DNA from: an uncultured Pelagibacteraceae bacterium
Lineage (GTDB): Bacteria; Pseudomonadota; Alphaproteobacteria; Pelagibacterales; Pelagibacteraceae
Assembly (NCBI GenBank): GCA_902627565.1
Contig: CACOJM010000003.1
Location: forward strand, 1 to 64,000
Reading direction: 5' to 3'
DNA: 64,000 nt
Numbering within the stretch: position 1 is the first letter of the stretch; each line of letters opens with the position of its first letter. Of the stretch, positions 40,358 through 59,947 are shown piece after piece. The translations under genes and the position numbers were made by a program. The notes beneath the pieces were generated by a model. It ran no database searches and was not told the origin of the DNA. It saw only the letters and a program-made list of their open reading frames with translations.

Positions 40358-40804
40358 CTAGCCTATAATAGAAATTTTATCTCCTACATAAATATTTGAG
40401 GAGGATAAAATTTGGCATCTCAACCCCCCTCTTCTAAGAAACTCCTTTAAAATATTATCTTGATTTAACATTTCTGTAAGATGTCTACATGGTCTACATA
40501 GATCAATTCCCTCAACTTTTACACTTCCTATAAGTAATTTTTTACCCACCAGATCATTTAGTTTTATTCCTTTGGTAATAATATTTCTTCTAAAATCTAT
40601 ATAAGGAATATTTAATCCAAATTTTGTATTGTAATAATCTATATTTTCAGACTCAATTAACGATAATTGACAATAAGGATCATTATAATCATCGAAATGT
40701 CTGTCTCCTAATACACCCTTGTTGGCTAGAACTTCAATTGAATCTACTGATACAATTTTTTTATTGTTATTACTTGATATTCCTAACTTAAAAACTTGAG
40801 ACAT
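40358..40804 (-). CDS. MOSC-domain protein
   Basis: A 148-residue MOSC (molybdenum cofactor sulfurase C-terminal) domain. The key sulfur-carrying Cys lies in GIDLCRPCRHL, with NKGVLGDRHFDDY and FRRNIITKGIKLNDLVG as family landmarks. MOSC proteins bind Moco or help reductases such as YiiM or mARC act on N-hydroxylated compounds. Here it stands alone. A moeA gene is 4 kb away, in line with use of Moco. Its coding end is 3 bp from the convergent coiled-coil gene. Confidence 0.82.
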   Translation of the reverse strand: MSQVFKLGISSNNNKKIVSVDSIEVLANKGVLGDRHFDDYNDPYCQLSLIESENIDYYNTKFGLNIPYIDFRRNIITKGIKLNDLVGKKLLIGSVKVEGIDLCRPCRHLTEMLNQDNILKEFLRRGGLRCQILSSSNIYVGDKISIIG

Positions 40805-40845: not shown

Positions 40846-41073
40846 ATGAACAAAGAAAATGCATCCAAATTATGGAAAATTATTCAAGAAGCTGGCGATT
40901 ATTTGGAAGGACAATTACCAGATCATCCCAATCACCCAAAAGGAAGAAATCCATACGCTCATGTGGCTTTTTGTGTAAAAAAAAAATTTTCTTTGAGCTA
41001 TAAAGATATACCTGATGTAAAATTTAAGGAAGTATTAGATTATATAGATTATCTAAAAAAAAATCCAAGTTAG
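40846..41073 (+). CDS. Small conserved-looking protein with an ORF6C-like segment
   Basis: A 75-residue protein. The C-terminal part, NPYAHVAFCVKKKFSLSYKDIPDVKFKEVLDYIDYL, resembles the ORF6C domain found at the C-terminus of phage antirepressor-type proteins (pattern: helix, SYKDIP, helix). No DNA-binding BRO/ORF6N domain precedes it. The first half has LWKIIQEAGDYLEGQLPDHP. It has its own promoter-like box and is convergent with the amidinotransferase gene (4 bp overlap). Function is unknown; the domain resemblance is from memory and weak. Confidence 0.65.
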   Translation: MNKENASKLWKIIQEAGDYLEGQLPDHPNHPKGRNPYAHVAFCVKKKFSLSYKDIPDVKFKEVLDYIDYLKKNPS

Positions 41074-42191
41074 TTTTTCTGATTAGGAAAATAGTCTTTT
41101 AAATCACCTTCTCTATAAACATCAGCTGTACAACAATGAAGTCCACCGCCAAAAGCATATGCATCTCTTAAGTCAACAGGAACAACTTCCATACCAAGTT
41201 TATCAAGTTGCTCTGCTTGATACTTTTCACTTTTTTCTACACAAACAGTTTTTGGATCTAAAACTAAAACATTCATTGAAAGCCAAACAGATGAATAACA
41301 TAGAGGTGGTGGCTCATTATGCGCGGGCTGAGCAGCATCAACTATTTCCCATCCGTTATTTTCAAATAACTTTCTTTGTTCTTTTGGTAATTTTCTTTGA
41401 GGATTATTAATTATCAATCCCTCTTTAATTGGAGTAAAAGTTGCATCAATATGTATTGGATATGGATCTCCAGGAAAATTAACTGCATGAACTCTATGAT
41501 CTTTATAATGTCTTTTTAACCAATCTATACCTTTTAAATTTGTTGTAAAACCGTGTTGAACGACTAAATCTTTTCCAAATCTCAACACATCTGCAGCATC
41601 AAATAATGGTTCTTCCTCAGTTGTTACAAAAAATTTATCTTCAGTCCATTTAAGTCTTTTTTGAATTCCAATTTTATCAGATAGGTAATCCTTTCGATAA
41701 TCTGCATCCGTTAATCTTGGTTTAGGGGCAGATTCATGCCTCATATTAGGATCGCTATTATAATACTCTTTTAAGAGTGGCCGGTAACATAAGTATTCAA
41801 ACCATCGACATCTATAGCTCATTGTTGCTTCTAGAATTTCATTTCCAACTGTTAATAAAACATCTCTTGGGGGCATGCATCCAAACATAGTTTCTGACTC
41901 CCAATCAGGTGTTGATGTTTTTTGATTAAAATCAATAGGTGAAGGTCTATCTACTTTTATGCCTCTTTTTATCAATATATTCGAAAAATCATCTAAAAGT
42001 TGATTTGCTTTATCAACGGTATCTTTAGTTCTAGGGCCAAATTTGCCTCTCATATCCGAGTCCTCAGGAACTTTTGCATCAAGAGCTGGCTCAGGGGCAG
42101 GTATACAAGTCCCATCTGCTCTACCGACTATAACATGCTTAAGCGGATCCCATTCGTTCCAACTATTGACTAAAATTTTATCTTTATTCAT
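41070..42191 (-). CDS. Glycine/arginine amidinotransferase (AGAT family)
   Basis: Transfers the amidino group between arginine and an amine acceptor; in animals glycine gives guanidinoacetate, the creatine precursor. The sequence follows AGAT along its length: SWNEWDPLKHVIVGRADG, DRPSPIDF, PPRDVLLTVGNEI and APKPRLTDADY. The catalytic set is FDAADV (Asp 201), PIHIDATF (His 247) and GGGLHCCTADV (Cys 353). ATG 42191 is chosen (373 aa) with AAGGA just before it; an upstream frame would run into the creatinase gene. It is 1 bp downstream of the creatinase stop, so the two are one operon. A StrB-like inosamine transferase is a less likely alternative. Confidence 0.88.
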   Translation of the reverse strand: MNKDKILVNSWNEWDPLKHVIVGRADGTCIPAPEPALDAKVPEDSDMRGKFGPRTKDTVDKANQLLDDFSNILIKRGIKVDRPSPIDFNQKTSTPDWESETMFGCMPPRDVLLTVGNEILEATMSYRCRWFEYLCYRPLLKEYYNSDPNMRHESAPKPRLTDADYRKDYLSDKIGIQKRLKWTEDKFFVTTEEEPLFDAADVLRFGKDLVVQHGFTTNLKGIDWLKRHYKDHRVHAVNFPGDPYPIHIDATFTPIKEGLIINNPQRKLPKEQRKLFENNGWEIVDAAQPAHNEPPPLCYSSVWLSMNVLVLDPKTVCVEKSEKYQAEQLDKLGMEVVPVDLRDAYAFGGGLHCCTADVYREGDLKDYFPNQKN

Positions 42192-42192
42192 T

Positions 42193-43410
42193 TTATCCTT
42201 TAATAATATTATGTTCTGGTCCAAATGGAAACTTCGTAATATTTTCAGCTCCATTTTTACCAATTACTAAAATATCATGCTCTCTATAACCACCAGCACC
42301 TGGTTTACCCTCTGGAATTAAAATCATTGGCTCCATTGAAATAACCATATTTTCCTCTAAAACTGTATCAATATCCTCTCTAAGTTCTAAGCCCGCCTCT
42401 CTACCATAAAAATGTGAAAGAACTCCAAAAGAATGGCCATAGCCAAAAGTTCTGTATTGCAGATACCCTAGCTCTGCAAACAATTCATTTAATTCTTTAC
42501 AAATATCTGAACATTTAACACCGGGTTTTATTAATTCTAAACCTCTTTTATGAACTTTTACATTTGCCTCCCAGGCTTTAAGAGATTCGTCATCAACCGT
42601 GTTTAAAAAAAGTGTTCTCTCAAGCGCTGTATAATAACCTGAAATCATAGGAAATGTATTCAACGATAGAATATCACCATTTTTTAATTTACGATTAGTT
42701 TTTGGATTATGAGCACCGTCTGTATTAATTCCTGATTGAAACCATACCCATGTGTCCATATATTCTGCATTAGGATAAGAATTTGCAATCTCTCTTTCCA
42801 TTCTATCTCTTCCAGAAATTGCAATTTCAATTTCACTTGCACCTTCTTTTATATTTTTAACTATTTCTTCCCCACCAATATCAGCTATCCTTGCACCATT
42901 TTTGATTATTTCTATTTCATCATTTGACTTTATCATTCGCAACTTCATTAGTTCTTTTGATATATCTTTAAAAACTGATATTGGAAAGATTGATCCAATT
43001 TTTTCTCTCATATCCAGGGTTATGTGATCGTTTTCAATTCCAATATTTTTTGGAAGTTCTTCTATGTCAATGATTGATAGAATGGCTTTTAAAAAATTAT
43101 CTCTTTTCCAATCTGTATAAATAACATTGTCACAATGTGATCTACGCCAAGGTTGACTTGCATCTATGTTAGCTGAAATAGTTGAAATATTGTTTTTTGT
43201 AATTATACAACCATAAGGTCTTCCAAAAGAACAATAAATAAAACCAGTGTAATATGCTATATTGTGCATAGATGTTAAAATAATCATGTCATGATTATTT
43301 TTTTCCATTACTATTCTTAACTTATTTACTCTTTGATTATATTCTTTGTCAGTAAAAGGAAGCTTTGCCCTCTCTCCATTTTTTAAGGTAAAAAAATCAG
43401 GTCTCTCCAT
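42193..43410 (-). CDS. Creatinase (creatine amidinohydrolase)
   Basis: Hydrolyses creatine to sarcosine and urea. It is a metal-free member of the pita-bread (M24) fold. The 405-residue sequence follows Pseudomonas creatinase nearly end to end. Matching active-site residues are Arg 64 (CSFGRPYG), His 234 (TDGAHNP), Glu 264 (TALERTLFL), Arg 337 (YGREAGLELR) and Glu 360 (SMEPM), offset by two from the known H232, E262, R335 and E358. ANIDASQPWRR, TDWKRDN and DTWVWFQSGINTDG are also typical. The metal ligands of M24 peptidases are not seen, so Xaa-Pro peptidase is rejected. A DMT permease is upstream and the amidinotransferase downstream. Confidence 0.93.
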   Translation of the reverse strand: MERPDFFTLKNGERAKLPFTDKEYNQRVNKLRIVMEKNNHDMIILTSMHNIAYYTGFIYCSFGRPYGCIITKNNISTISANIDASQPWRRSHCDNVIYTDWKRDNFLKAILSIIDIEELPKNIGIENDHITLDMREKIGSIFPISVFKDISKELMKLRMIKSNDEIEIIKNGARIADIGGEEIVKNIKEGASEIEIAISGRDRMEREIANSYPNAEYMDTWVWFQSGINTDGAHNPKTNRKLKNGDILSLNTFPMISGYYTALERTLFLNTVDDESLKAWEANVKVHKRGLELIKPGVKCSDICKELNELFAELGYLQYRTFGYGHSFGVLSHFYGREAGLELREDIDTVLEENMVISMEPMILIPEGKPGAGGYREHDILVIGKNGAENITKFPFGPEHNIIKG

Positions 43411-43420
43411 AACTTTAGTT

Positions 43421-44326
43421 TTAATTTAGAGCAATGAATCTTTTATTCCATCTCATAATTAAACTATAATAAGTTATTGAAACAAAAAGAAAAAAACCAC
43501 CGACAATAGTATTTGTTGATGGTACTTCGTTGATACCAAACAATGGTAACCATACCCAAAAAATCCCACCAATTACCTCAGTTAAAGATAACAAAGTGAG
43601 TTCTGCTGCAGGAATTGCTTTTGATCCAATTGAATATAAAATTAATCCCAGACAAACTAATGTTCCATGTAAAGAAAACATAGAACTATTAAAGCTTGTT
43701 GCAAAAAAAGGTTGATTTTTACTTAAAATCATAACCGTTGCTATGATAAAGCAAAATAATCCTGCTATAGCAACTGTAGTAAATTTTGGAGTTTCTTTTC
43801 TCCACCTTAATGTTACGGAAAACACTGAAAATCCAATTGACGAAGTAATTCCAAAAATAAAACCTATCACCGAACTTTTTTCAGTATTACCTAATGCCAT
43901 TATAATTATTCCTATTGTTGCAAGAATTATTGAAATCCAAACATTAAAAGTTATTCTTTCTTTTAAAAATAAAAAGGCTAGTAATGCCGTAAAAAAAGGC
44001 ATTGCTGCTAAACATAACAAAGTGATTGCAGCCGTTGTATTTGTTATTGAGTAAATAAAAGAAATCATTGCTACACCAAGACCACATCCACCAAGTAAAC
44101 CAGATTTACCAATTTTTTTGTAATTCTTATAAAAATTTATTCCTTCCTCAAAATACAAATATAAATTTAAAAGTATAAATATTGTTAAACCCCTACCAAA
44201 TATATATTGCCATGGCACTAAATGGGGTTGTTCCATATATCTAACCACTAATGGACCAAATGACCAAAGTATTCCTGCAAATAATACTACTGGTACTGCT
44301 ATTTTTTCATTTTTAAGTTCAAACAT
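43421..44326 (-). CDS. DMT-superfamily permease (EamA type) beside creatinase
   Basis: A 301-residue protein with about ten membrane helices in two EamA repeats, including ITNTTAAITLLCLAAMPFFTALLAFLFLKE and PAAELTLLSLTEVIGGIFWVW. It lies 10 bp before the creatinase gene on the same strand and heads the unit permease-creatinase-amidinotransferase. It is therefore a candidate carrier for creatine or another guanidino compound. This substrate is inference from position; the family transports many metabolites. Confidence 0.85.
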   Translation of the reverse strand: MFELKNEKIAVPVVLFAGILWSFGPLVVRYMEQPHLVPWQYIFGRGLTIFILLNLYLYFEEGINFYKNYKKIGKSGLLGGCGLGVAMISFIYSITNTTAAITLLCLAAMPFFTALLAFLFLKERITFNVWISIILATIGIIIMALGNTEKSSVIGFIFGITSSIGFSVFSVTLRWRKETPKFTTVAIAGLFCFIIATVMILSKNQPFFATSFNSSMFSLHGTLVCLGLILYSIGSKAIPAAELTLLSLTEVIGGIFWVWLPLFGINEVPSTNTIVGGFFLFVSITYYSLIMRWNKRFIALN

Positions 44327-44380: not shown

Positions 44381-45631
44381 TTAAAAAATTTTATTTGGTT
44401 GATTTGGAAAAAAACAATCAACAATTTCATTTTTTTTGAATACTGCTTTACCAGAAGGCAACACAGTCCAAACATTTGATTTGACAAATGGTTTAATTCT
44501 AAATGACTCTTGATTATTAAAAATTTCAACTTCTAATTTACCATTTTTAGTTGTATTAATTCTACTTCTTAAGAATATTGTAAAATTAGCATTTTTTGAA
44601 TAATTATTTTTTAAAACAGCCTTAAAAGATTTTTCTTTTTCAACTTCTAAAGACTCCTCTAAGTAAGGATATACAAAAAATCTTAGACAAGCCACTGATG
44701 AAATCGGATTACCAGGTAAACCAAAAATTACCTTTTGTTTTCCTTTAATCTTTGCAAATAAAACGGGTTTCCCCGGTCTTATAGCAATACTCTTGAAATA
44801 AGCTGATAATCTAAATTTTTTAATAATGCCTGGAACAAAATCAAATTTTCCAGCTGAAACAGCCCCTGAAGTTATAATTATATCATTTTTCGATTTAATA
44901 AAGTTTTTAATTTTTTTTTCAAATTTATATTCATCTTTATCTCTAAGAATACCGCCATTGTGAAAATTATATAAAAAATTCTGACTTGCAGATTTAATAT
45001 AATGTAAATTTGAATTTCTAACTTTCCAATTTTGTATTTTATCTTTGTTACTTATTTCATTTCCAGTCGAAAAAAATAATATATTTGGTATTTTTTTTAC
45101 TCTGATATATTTTACACCTAATGTCTTGAGAGCTAAAATATGATTAGATTTTAAAATTGTACCTTTTTTAATTAAAAGTTCATTTTTTTTATAATCAGAA
45201 CCTTTAAATCTTATATTCTTATTTTTAGTTATTTTTTGATTTATAGAAATAAACTTAGCATTTTTTTTATTTGGATATAACACGACCTGTTCTTTTGGAA
45301 TGACTGCATCAAAACCTTTGGGCAATATACCCCCAGTCATAATTTCATATGTTTCAAATTTTTTTATTTTTTTTGATTTTGGTTTACTTCCTGCTGCTAC
45401 TGAACCTAAAATCTTAAACAATCTAATTCTTTTTGTATTTAAATTCCTTGTTTCTTTCGAATTAATTGCAAAACCATCAAAGGCTGAATTATTTGAAGCT
45501 GGATAATGTGTTTTTGAGTAAATATTAACTGCACTTATCCTATTTAAGCTTTTTAAGCTGTTTATCTTCTCGATATCAAATTTTATCTTATTTTTTTTTA
45601 GGATTTTTAATGCTTGGCTATAAGATTTCAT
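44381..45631 (-). CDS. moeA: Molybdopterin molybdotransferase
   Basis: Inserts molybdate in molybdopterin to form Moco. The 416-residue protein has MoeA landmarks: PASNNSAFDGFAINSKET, TGGILPKGFDAVIPKEQV, FFSTGNEI, DIIITSGAVSAGKFDFVP and FGLPGNPISSVACLRFFVYP. The sequence is rich in Lys. A TATAAT box is 6 nt before its ATG, suggesting a leaderless mRNA. The formate dehydrogenase 1 kb away is of the metal-free type, so the Moco user must lie elsewhere. Confidence 0.92.
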   Translation of the reverse strand: MKSYSQALKILKKNKIKFDIEKINSLKSLNRISAVNIYSKTHYPASNNSAFDGFAINSKETRNLNTKRIRLFKILGSVAAGSKPKSKKIKKFETYEIMTGGILPKGFDAVIPKEQVVLYPNKKNAKFISINQKITKNKNIRFKGSDYKKNELLIKKGTILKSNHILALKTLGVKYIRVKKIPNILFFSTGNEISNKDKIQNWKVRNSNLHYIKSASQNFLYNFHNGGILRDKDEYKFEKKIKNFIKSKNDIIITSGAVSAGKFDFVPGIIKKFRLSAYFKSIAIRPGKPVLFAKIKGKQKVIFGLPGNPISSVACLRFFVYPYLEESLEVEKEKSFKAVLKNNYSKNANFTIFLRSRINTTKNGKLEVEIFNNQESFRIKPFVKSNVWTVLPSGKAVFKKNEIVDCFFPNQPNKIF

Positions 45632-46605: not shown

Positions 46606-47805
46606 ATGAAGATATTATGCGTACTGTATGATGATCCAAAAGGTGGGATGCCGAAATCATACGCACTTTCTGAATTACCAAAGATAGAAAAATACCCAGA
46701 TGGAATGACTTTACCAACACCCAAAGGTAGAGATTATACTCCTGGTCAATTATTAGGGTGTGTATCTGGTGAATTAGGATTAAGAAAATTTCTAGAAAGT
46801 AACGGCCATGAATTAGTAGTAACTAATAGTAAAGATGGAGATGGGTGCGAAGCTGACAAACACATAGTTGATGCTGACATTGTTATTTCCCAACCATTCT
46901 TTCCGTATTATTTAACGAAAGAGAGGATTGCAAAAGCTAAAAATCTTAAAATGGCAATTACAGCAGGTATTGGCTCAGATCATGTTGATTTGCAAGCAGC
47001 AATGGATAATAAAATTGATGTTGTAGAGGTAACTTATTGTAATTCAAGATCTGTGGCTGAACACATTGTTATGATGATTGTTTCAATGGTTAGAGATTAT
47101 CATAACCAGCACAGAATAGTTAATGAAGGTGGATGGAATATTGCTGATGCGGTTCAAAGATCTTATGATGTAGAGGGTATGCATATTGGAACAGTAGCTG
47201 CAGGACGAATAGGCTTAGATGCATTAAGAAAAATGAAACCTTTTGATGTTCATTTACATTATTTTGATAGACATAAACTACCTGAATCTGTTGAAAAAGA
47301 ATTAAACCTAACATTTCATGAATCTGTTGAATCAATGGTAAAAGTCTGTGATGTAGTAACTATTAATTGTCCTTTACATCCGGAAACAGAAAACCTTTTT
47401 GATGATGCGATGATCAGTAAAATGAAAAAGGGAGCTTATATTGTAAACACTGCAAGAGGAAAAATATGTAATCGCGAGGCAATTGCAAAAGCTCTAAAAA
47501 GTGGTCAATTAAGTGGTTATGCTGGAGATGTATGGTTTCCTCAACCAGCACCTAATGATCATGTATGGAGAAGTATGCCTAATCATGGTATGACACCACA
47601 TACTTCAGGAACATCTTTAACAGCTCAAGCAAGATATGCGGATGGTGTAAGAGAAATATTAGAATGTTTTTTTGAAGGCAAAGAGATCAGAAACCAATAT
47701 TTAATTGTAAAAGATGGTCAATTAGCTGGTATGGGTGCTCATTCATATAGTAAAGGATCTGCTACTGGTGGTTCAGAGGAAGCAGCTAAATATAAGAAAA
47801 AATAA
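46606..47805 (+). CDS. fdh: NAD-dependent formate dehydrogenase (metal-free)
   Basis: Oxidises formate to CO2 with reduction of NAD. The 399-residue D-2-hydroxyacid dehydrogenase-family protein follows Pseudomonas sp. 101 FDH residue by residue: Asn 146 (TYCNS), the NAD motif AAGRIGL, Asp 221 (HYFDRHK) for NAD preference, Arg 284 (NTARGK) and His 332 (PHTSGT). It ends with the FDH-specific tail GAHSYSKGSATGGSEEAAK. The strong AGGAGA ribosome site is 7 nt before the ATG. It ends with a good terminator. It would recover energy from C1 units such as those from glycine cleavage. Confidence 0.97.
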   Translation: MKILCVLYDDPKGGMPKSYALSELPKIEKYPDGMTLPTPKGRDYTPGQLLGCVSGELGLRKFLESNGHELVVTNSKDGDGCEADKHIVDADIVISQPFFPYYLTKERIAKAKNLKMAITAGIGSDHVDLQAAMDNKIDVVEVTYCNSRSVAEHIVMMIVSMVRDYHNQHRIVNEGGWNIADAVQRSYDVEGMHIGTVAAGRIGLDALRKMKPFDVHLHYFDRHKLPESVEKELNLTFHESVESMVKVCDVVTINCPLHPETENLFDDAMISKMKKGAYIVNTARGKICNREAIAKALKSGQLSGYAGDVWFPQPAPNDHVWRSMPNHGMTPHTSGTSLTAQARYADGVREILECFFEGKEIRNQYLIVKDGQLAGMGAHSYSKGSATGGSEEAAKYKKK

Positions 47806-59753: not shown

Positions 59754-59914
59754 ATTAACTCTTTTTACCCATCTGTATATTTGCCTGAGAGTTTTGCTCC
59801 TTCGGCGAGAATTTAATCTCTTTCCAGAGTTAATATGCTACGGTCCTTTTTGCCTGAGAGATTCCTGGGTGGTTGCTCCTTCGGCGCTACGATTTTCTGT
59901 AGTCTCTCCCGTAG
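59751..59914 (-). promoter_or_regulatory. Tandem glycine riboswitch of gcvT-gcvH-gcvP with a start-codon-pairing segment
   Basis: Read on the minus strand, aptamer I spans 59914-59838: CTACGGGAGAGAC, then CGCCGAAGGAGC, CTCTCAGGCAAAAAGG and closing CCGTAG. Aptamer II spans 59828-59772: TCTGGAAAGAG, CGCCGAAGGAGC, CTCTCAGGCAAA, closing CAGA. The pair is the classical gcvT architecture. Between the aptamers lies CATATTAACTCT (59837-59826), the exact reverse complement of AGAGTTAATATG (59762-59751), which holds the purine-rich segment and the gcvT ATG. No intrinsic terminator fits in the last 20 nt, so control is probably translational. Whether glycine turns expression on or off cannot be read for certain. 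Confidence 0.95.
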
Positions 59915-59918
59915 TGAT

Positions 59919-59947
59919 ATAATCTAACATGTAGATAGATATGTCAA
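59919..59947 (-). promoter_or_regulatory. gcvT promoter with the -35 built on the upstream gene's stop codon
   Basis: A perfect TTGACA (59947-59942) and GATTAT (59924-59919) are 17 bp apart. A start about 7 nt downstream would place the 5' end of the RNA at 59912, at the base of aptamer I. The TGA stop of the DMT permease gene (59946-59944) lies inside the TTGACA. Confidence 0.7.

What the first reader, a model, noticed from the sequence alone, without database searches (positions are those of the whole stretch)
41070..44326. Creatinase plus glycine-amidinotransferase operon with its own permease
A gene matching Pseudomonas creatinase at all known active-site residues is directly followed by an AGAT-type amidinotransferase (Asp, His and Cys triad present), with an EamA permease heading the unit. 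Creatinase makes sarcosine and urea; AGAT interconverts arginine plus glycine with guanidinoacetate plus ornithine. The pair suggests a guanidino-compound pathway (use of dissolved creatine and guanidinoacetate). I know of no established pathway that pairs these two enzymes in this lineage.
Basis: partly seen in the sequence, partly recalled or inferred. Interest (0 to 1): 0.75.

Follow-up and report, generated by a model that had tools for sequence, protein, structure and literature searches.

The report
SAR11 guanidino-compound operon, swappable enzymes
A small gene set in an abundant ocean bacterium pairs a transporter with two different enzymes that act on guanidino compounds such as creatine; relatives keep one enzyme, the other, or both behind the same transporter, which suggests a little-studied way for ocean bacteria to obtain glycine and nitrogen.

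Summary
In detail: a tight three-gene minus-strand unit encodes EamA permease, creatinase and AGAT-type amidinotransferase (gaps of 10 and 1 nt). Creatinase matches solved creatinases at the seven active-site residues checked; creatinase in SAR11 is already in print. The amidinotransferase is 45% identical to human AGAT and keeps the catalytic and carboxylate-binding residues, but belongs to an alphaproteobacterial clade with a changed acceptor loop (N300 to Y, M302 to I, one inserted residue), so glycine as acceptor is likely but untested.

New here: (1) the pair is not fixed. EamA occurs with amidinotransferase alone, both enzymes, or (two genomes) creatinase alone; one relative carries a creatinase-deletion scar. 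(2) In related genera the enzymes fill the same slot before a PotABCD-type importer (amidinotransferase 7, creatinase 8, both 2 of 17), with binding proteins up to 98% identical between the two types. (3) All 15 sampled family genomes holding both genes have them adjacent.

Best reading: uptake and breakdown of guanidino acids, creatinase releasing urea, the amidinotransferase running guanidinoacetate + ornithine to glycine + arginine. Direction, substrates and transport are inferred. My paper searches found no account of the amidinotransferase in SAR11.

The parts
43421..44326 (-). EamA/DMT-family permease, head of the three-gene unit (301 aa)
   Evidence: Pfam EamA E 1.6e-17; AlphaFold2 model (mean pLDDT 73) resembles DMT transporters, among them choline importer LicB 7paf (TM 0.66/0.70) and 5i20 (recalled to be the exporter YddG); upstream of AGAT or creatinase-AGAT in 75 of 80 related loci
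42193..43410 (-). creatinase (creatine amidinohydrolase, 405 aa)
   Evidence: E 4.5e-159 to 1chm over 401 aa; the seven active-site residues checked are conserved
41070..42191 (-). AGAT-type amidinotransferase (373 aa), alphaproteobacterial clade with acceptor loop FPGDPYPIHID
   Evidence: 45% identical to human AGAT; catalytic triad and carboxylate-site residues kept, loop changed; start codon

Best explanation
It is an uptake-and-breakdown module for guanidino acids. The permease (EamA in Pelagibacter; a PotABCD-type ABC importer in related genera) brings in compounds such as creatine or guanidinoacetate. Creatinase hydrolyses creatine to sarcosine and urea; sarcosine is then demethylated to glycine by enzymes found elsewhere in this genome. 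The AGAT-type enzyme works in the catabolic direction: it moves the amidino group from guanidinoacetate (or a close relative) to ornithine, giving glycine and arginine, so the nitrogen is kept rather than lost as urea. Shown here: gene identities, catalytic residues, tight spacing, repeated linkage, interchange of the two enzymes behind each transporter. Inferred: substrates, reaction direction, import.
For: Both enzymes sit, singly or together, behind the same two transporter types. EamA + AGAT only: 27 of 80 loci; EamA + creatinase + AGAT: 48 of 80 (the 80 most similar loci of 570); EamA + creatinase only: G006 and G038. First gene of the EutA-M24-PotADBC operon: AGAT 7, creatinase 8, both 2, of 17 contiguous cases. 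Most of those loci were fetched because they hold one of the enzymes; starting instead from the M24 gene, 17 genomes of genera g2, g3 and g8 have the operon, the slot is visible in 15 and holds one or both enzymes in 15 of 15. PotD is 95-98% identical between AGAT-slot L080, L082, L084 and creatinase-slot L089, L092. An ABC operon with a periplasmic binding protein is an importer, which favours catabolism. Two further alphaproteobacterial links: creatinase divergent from and next to AGAT in G523 (L209), and an agmatinase-family ureohydrolase directly upstream of AGAT with PotCBDA on the far side in G727 (L219). A sarcosine-to-glycine route is likely in this genome: two soxB matches over cut-off and two FAO_M matches. 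The AGAT reaction has K about 1 in vitro (PMC9950171, passages), so it can run backwards. A PLP aldolase related to threonine aldolase and GntG follows AGAT in 11 of the 22 EamA-AGAT loci (below both families' cut-offs); threonine aldolase forms glycine.
Against: No substrate or direction was tested. The acceptor loop differs from human AGAT. EamA-family proteins include exporters. PotD is not near-identical in all slot strains: 42% in L091, 58-60% in L093, 89-90% in L094. The EutA-M24-Pot operon also exists without either enzyme in 13 of 13 examined loci from genera g1, g4, g6 and g14, the window's genome included, so its substrate need not be the enzymes' substrate. Of 11 AGAT loci of the same clade outside SAR11, 6 show none of the partners searched. 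Urease is not found in this 85%-complete genome and is over cut-off in only 2 of 41 genus genomes, so urea from creatinase would usually be wasted.
Confidence: 0.55

Rival explanations
1. The amidinotransferase uses an amidino acceptor/donor pair other than glycine/guanidinoacetate (for example sarcosine, taurine, beta-alanine or GABA), made possible by its changed acceptor loop; it still belongs to guanidino metabolism.
For: Clade-wide loop change N300Y, M302I plus one inserted residue (80 of 81 sequences VNFPGDPYPIHIDATF, one FNFPGDPYPIHIDATF). The two positions are linked to the narrow substrate specificity of CyrA (PMC3684758, passages).
Against: AoaA, a near-copy of CyrA, also differs at both positions (F, S) and was shown to use glycine (same passages). 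The carboxylate-site residues R322/S354/S355 are kept; SxtG lacks R322 and S354.
Confidence: 0.25
2. AGAT runs forward (arginine + glycine to guanidinoacetate + ornithine) and EamA exports the product; creatinase is an unrelated add-on.
For: EamA-family members include exporters; EamA-AGAT is the constant core of the unit in the genus (26 of 27 genomes have AGAT); an EamA-family gene also follows AGAT in G876 (L220); the aldolase neighbour could feed glycine to it.
Against: AGAT also leads an ABC importer operon in other genera; the reaction spends glycine and arginine; creatinase interchanges with it.
Confidence: 0.12
3. Arginase bypass: AGAT makes creatine from arginine + sarcosine, creatinase splits it back to sarcosine + urea; net arginine to ornithine + urea.
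For: Chemically closed cycle if sarcosine is accepted; ureohydrolase next to AGAT in G727.
Against: Creatinase is missing in 16 of 27 genus genomes and arginase-family enzymes are already present in 36 of 41, so no bypass seems needed.
Confidence: 0.04
4. Neighbourhood only: the genes share a recombination-prone slot without a joint function.
For: The stretches around the unit vary between strains, and the importer operon occurs without the enzymes in other genera (13 of 13 examined).
Against: 15 of 15 genomes with both genes have them adjacent, in two gene orders, plus a divergent arrangement in another family (L209); counted from the M24 gene, 15 of 15 visible slots in g2, g3 and g8 held these enzymes; gaps are mostly a few nt.
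Confidence: 0.04

Closest known systems
Creatinase (EC 3.5.3.3; 1chm, 1kp0, 7yto) and bacterial creatine utilisation clusters (Pseudomonas, Corynebacterium, Arthrobacter, Roseobacter; PMC8864220, passages seen)
   Same: Same enzyme, full-length match, same active-site residues; gene next to a transporter
   Different: Transporter is EamA rather than the MFS protein CreT of most of those clusters; second enzyme is an amidinotransferase; sarcosine enzymes lie elsewhere in the genome
L-arginine:glycine amidinotransferase (human GATM, 1jdw)
   Same: 45% identity over the whole length; catalytic and carboxylate-site residues kept
   Different: Acceptor loop N300Y, M302I plus one inserted residue; bacterial setting that looks catabolic instead of creatine synthesis
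SAR11 creatine/glycine betaine to glycine pathway (PMC3686209; PMC3160333; passages seen)
   Same: Creatinase already listed as SAR11 'Core SG1a' and a creatine-to-glycine route stated (PMC3686209)
   Different: Word searches of both texts find no amidinotransferase; PMC3160333 does not mention creatine; the enzyme interchange and transporter linkage are not in the passages seen
Ectoine utilisation (eutA/eutD) operons
   Same: The slot operon holds EutA-like and EutD/DoeA-like proteins
   Different: Both score below the NCBIfam equivalog cut-offs (218 against 318 and 463 against 613 bits), so ectoine is not shown to be the substrate

Membership tests
Creatinase (EC 3.5.3.3) | Full-length similarity to solved creatinases well above other M24 proteins | tested here: met
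   E 9.5e-160 to 6.4e-148 against 1e-26 for the next M24 enzyme
Creatinase (EC 3.5.3.3) | Active-site residues F62, R64, H232, E262, R335, E358, H376 (list recalled) | tested here: met
   identical in 21 of 21 sequences; the distant DoeA-like F14 shows 2 of 7 in the same alignment, where its alignment is unsure
Creatinase (EC 3.5.3.3) | Hydrolysis of creatine to sarcosine and urea | not testable with these tools
   needs an assay
AGAT (EC 2.1.4.1) | Catalytic D254, H303, C407 and D170, D305 | tested here: met
   window and all full-length SAR11 rows of the family cluster; one short row, L060, covers only the C-terminal part
AGAT (EC 2.1.4.1) | Amino-acid carboxylate site R322, S354, S355 (roles recalled) | tested here: met
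   kept in the window; S354Y in the second SAR11 copies L077 and L085
AGAT (EC 2.1.4.1) | Acceptor-loop residues N300 and M302 of human AGAT | tested here: not met
   Y and I, with one inserted residue; AoaA differs too and still uses glycine, so this feature is not required for the activity
AGAT (EC 2.1.4.1) | Glycine/arginine amidino transfer | not testable with these tools
   needs an assay
EamA/DMT permease | Pfam EamA match and DMT fold | tested here: met
EamA/DMT permease | Substrate creatine/guanidinoacetate, direction inward | not testable with these tools
   inferred from linkage only

The most novel reading that the evidence does not exclude
In SAR11 the AGAT-type enzyme is a functional stand-in for creatinase: a catabolic amidinotransferase that takes the amidino group from imported creatine or guanidinoacetate and puts it on ornithine, making arginine plus sarcosine/glycine and saving the nitrogen that creatinase would release as urea. 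Strains carry the urea-releasing enzyme, the nitrogen-saving enzyme, or both behind the same importer.
Probability: 0.3. Interest if true: 0.75.

Novelty: new variant of a known kind. Interest (0 to 1): 0.55.

Why it matters
SAR11 cells are among the most abundant in the ocean and depend on outside glycine or serine (recalled). An amidinotransferase found in 26 of 27 sampled genomes of this genus, for which my searches found no described role, is tied to creatinase and to transporters; this points to dissolved guanidino acids as a glycine and nitrogen source. If the reverse-AGAT reading is right, it would be a catabolic use of an enzyme family that I know only from biosynthesis (creatine, saxitoxin, cylindrospermopsin, streptomycin, phaseolotoxin; recalled). 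It is directly testable with purified proteins and with SAR11 strains that do and do not carry creatinase.

Tried and rejected
A regulatory RNA near the unit: Rfam at gathering thresholds gives one hit in the window, a glycine riboswitch at 59921-59831 before gcvT, none at this operon. Promoter/terminator scan: 25 promoter-like sites against 28.2 expected in shuffles and 2 terminator-like against 1.8, uninformative. Coevolution of EamA with creatinase: creatinase presence is clustered (no shuffle of 500 as low) but needs 7 changes on the EamA tree and 6 on the AGAT tree; EamA of a creatinase-free strain (L165) is nearly identical to that of carriers, so I see no sign that EamA is specialised for creatine. 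PotD split by enzyme: rejected, nearly the same binding protein stands with both types in the closest strains. Ectoine as the slot operon's substrate: not adopted, scores below cut-off. A creatine-forming methyltransferase (GAMT) was not searched for: I knew of no family model for it. A first loop-pattern count returned nothing because the pattern was too short; it was corrected. The first creatinase residue check used numbering off by one and was redone. The genome-contig scan kept the 80 best of 570 relatives, all with Pelagibacteraceae/SAR11 titles, so other lineages come from sampled genomes without names. Gene calls in high-GC loci (L210, L218, L221, L222) were spoiled by antisense reading frames, so partners there were sought by tblastn instead. 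On re-checking, my first slot count was partly circular (loci fetched because they held an enzyme); I added the count that starts from the M24 gene.
Full report
What is there. The window is a SAR11 (Pelagibacter-type) contig, G000:C3 of an 85%-complete genome. Its nearest named relatives are Pelagibacteraceae genomes. Three minus-strand genes follow each other closely: EamA permease 44326-43421, creatinase 43410-42193 and AGAT-type amidinotransferase 42191-41070. MoeA ends 54 nt upstream of EamA on the same strand, but several relatives have EamA-AGAT without MoeA in front (L064, L071-L075, L078, L079), so I treat the three genes as their own unit. No transcript was seen.

Creatinase. The protein matches the three solved creatinases along its whole length at E 6.4e-148 or better, far above any other M24 protein. 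The seven active-site positions that I checked are identical in the window, in 19 other SAR11-family sequences and in one from another alphaproteobacterial family. This gene in SAR11 is not new: a 2013 metagenome paper lists creatinase as 'Core SG1a' and speaks of genes to convert creatine to glycine (PMC3686209, passages seen).

Amidinotransferase. The protein is 45% identical to human AGAT and 39% to SxtG. D170, D254, H303, D305, R322, S354, S355 and C407 are all present; SxtG lacks R322 and S354. One thing differs: the loop before the catalytic histidine reads FPGDPYPIHID instead of FKDPNPMHID. Human N300 and M302 become Y and I, and one residue is inserted. Of 81 sequences (the window and the 80 closest loci), 80 have VNFPGDPYPIHIDATF and one FNFPGDPYPIHIDATF. 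On a quick tree the SAR11 sequences and 11 from other sampled genomes form one clade with support 100 and a long stem; human AGAT branches outside it (with the tool's long-branch warning). Two outer clade members have other loops: L212 (I, T) and L223 (F, S). F and S are the residues reported for AoaA and CyrA; AoaA was shown to use glycine (PMC3684758, passages). So glycine use is plausible but not proved.

How constant the pair is. In a sample of 147 Pelagibacteraceae genomes, AGAT is found in 39 (one of them only a distant homologue, G006) and creatinase in 27. In the window's genus AGAT is in 26 of 27 genomes and creatinase in 11 of 27, always with AGAT. Leaving out G006's distant homologue, 15 genomes have both, and in 15 of 15 the genes are adjacent (one cut by a contig end). 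Among the 80 most similar loci of 570, 48 read EamA-creatinase-AGAT, 27 EamA-AGAT, 3 are cut before anything upstream of AGAT can be seen, and 2 read creatinase-AGAT; of these two, L122 is cut upstream, and in L164 extra sequence separates creatinase from AGAT while EamA lies further upstream. Creatinase presence needs 7 changes on the EamA tree, at least 4 forced by well-supported branches (75 loci). In L112 the start of a creatinase gene survives between EamA and AGAT, so there the creatinase was lost.

Conservation. Across 48 loci with all three genes, mean identity to the window is 93% for AGAT, 86% for creatinase and 83% for EamA. These loci were picked by AGAT similarity, so the contrast is biased upward for AGAT.

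The slot swap. In other genera of the family (codes g2, g3, g8, g10) the same enzymes lead a different operon: EutA-like protein, DoeA-like M24 protein, then PotA, PotD, PotB, PotC. The gene before EutA is AGAT in 7 (L080, L081, L082, L084, L087, L280, L281), creatinase in 8 (L089, L091, L092, L093, L094, L278, L282, L287) and AGAT plus creatinase in 2 (L068, L069) of 17 contiguous cases. Because many of these loci were fetched for holding an enzyme, I also counted from the M24 gene: of the 50 of 147 genomes with it, 17 belong to g2, g3 or g8; in two of them (G057, G116) the contig is cut inside EutA, and in the other 15 the slot holds AGAT (6), creatinase (8) or both (1). PotD is 95-98% identical between three AGAT-slot strains and two creatinase-slot strains; it is 89-90% in L094 and much lower in L091 (42%) and L093 (58-60%). 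In genera g1, g4, g6 and g14 the operon was found without either enzyme in 13 of 13 loci examined (7 of 26 in g1, 2 of 2, 3 of 3 and 1 of 1). L279 (contig edge) and L288 (g11, odd arrangement) were not counted. In genus g6, EamA is followed by creatinase with no AGAT in G006 and G038. Each transporter type thus occurs with AGAT alone, creatinase alone, or both. This interchange is the strongest sign that the two unrelated enzymes serve the same purpose.

Other lineages. In 385 sampled genomes of the class, AGAT matches (E at most 1e-40) occur in 12 and creatinase (E at most 1e-100) in 45; 8 genomes have both (in one, G329, AGAT is of another, more distant clade), and in 4 of the 8 they are adjacent: three SAR11 and G523. 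I fetched 11 loci of the same AGAT clade outside SAR11 from the class and phylum samples. In G727 an agmatinase-family ureohydrolase stands directly upstream of AGAT, with PotCBDA, EutA-like and M24 genes on the other side and AA_synth, hydrolase, luciferase-like and aldehyde dehydrogenase genes before it. In G876 an EamA-family transporter follows AGAT. In G306 AGAT leads EutA-, EutB- and EutC-like genes. In G833 a potC-like gene lies about 9 kb away. The other six (L208, L210, L211, L218, L221, L223) show none of the partners that I searched by tblastn. So urea-releasing guanidino enzymes, importers and AGAT recur together, but not everywhere.

How it most likely works. The importer operons argue for uptake and breakdown. 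Creatinase gives sarcosine plus urea; this genome has two soxB matches over cut-off and two FAO_M matches, families that can take sarcosine to glycine (the role of related SAR11 genes is proposed in PMC3160333, passages). AGAT has an equilibrium constant of about 1 in vitro (PMC9950171, passages), so guanidinoacetate plus ornithine can give glycine plus arginine. Urease is over cut-off in 2 of 41 genus genomes and not found in this one, so an enzyme that keeps the amidino nitrogen would have an advantage; that is inference. The permease model (mean pLDDT 73) resembles DMT transporters, among them the choline importer LicB, which shows that import is possible in this fold, not that it happens here.

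What is in print. Searches for creatinase + SAR11 (2 papers), glycine amidinotransferase + Pelagibacter (1, unrelated by its title), amidinotransferase + SAR11 (0), guanidinoacetate + amidinotransferase + marine bacteria (0), SAR11 + creatine (15, 14 listed) and glycine amidinotransferase + Rhodobacteraceae (1, unrelated by its title) found no account of the amidinotransferase in SAR11 or of the pair. For most of these I saw listings only; passages were read from PMC3686209 and PMC11366302, and a word search of PMC12636525 found none of the terms. Only the first 30 of 346 papers holding two of creatinase, amidinotransferase and guanidinoacetate were listed. Most subscription papers are not held; the 2017 study on creatine use in seawater was seen only as a citation.

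Verdict. Observation confirmed; interpretation partly supported. A known enzyme (creatinase) and a divergent relative of another (AGAT) form an interchangeable, transporter-linked module in a dominant ocean lineage. New variant of a known kind, interest 0.55.

Noticed in passing
window 59831-59921 (-): Glycine riboswitch (66.8 bits) upstream of the genes that read as glycine cleavage gcvT-gcvH-gcvP.
   Followed up: no
window 44381-45631 (-), 46606-47805 (+), 40358-40804 (-): MoeA stands without the MobA- and FdhD-like genes (read by eye) that accompany it in relatives such as L061-L063; an NAD-dependent formate dehydrogenase gene and a MOSC gene lie nearby. Possible replacement of a molybdenum formate dehydrogenase.
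   Followed up: partly
L077 9142-10251 (-), L085 8577-9686 (+): Second AGAT copy (75-76% identical, S354Y) in two Pelagibacter genomes, followed by EamA-like, luciferase-like, AA_synth and other genes, in L077 also a 2OG oxygenase; possibly another specificity.
   Followed up: partly
L088 8858-10042 (+): Distant AGAT homologue (35%) in a SAR11-family genome beside a polysaccharide deacetylase and a formyltransferase-domain gene, perhaps for surface-sugar modification.
   Followed up: partly
L269 3090-4076 (-) (G000:C7): Arginase-family ureohydrolase near an aldehyde dehydrogenase and the EutA-M24-Pot operon in the window's own genome; 36 of 41 genus genomes have an arginase-family gene.
   Followed up: partly
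L061, L062, L063, L065, L066, L071, L073, L086, L096, L097, L098: A PLP aldolase related to threonine aldolase/GntG directly follows AGAT in these 11 of 22 EamA-AGAT loci; it is missing behind AGAT in the window.
   Followed up: partly
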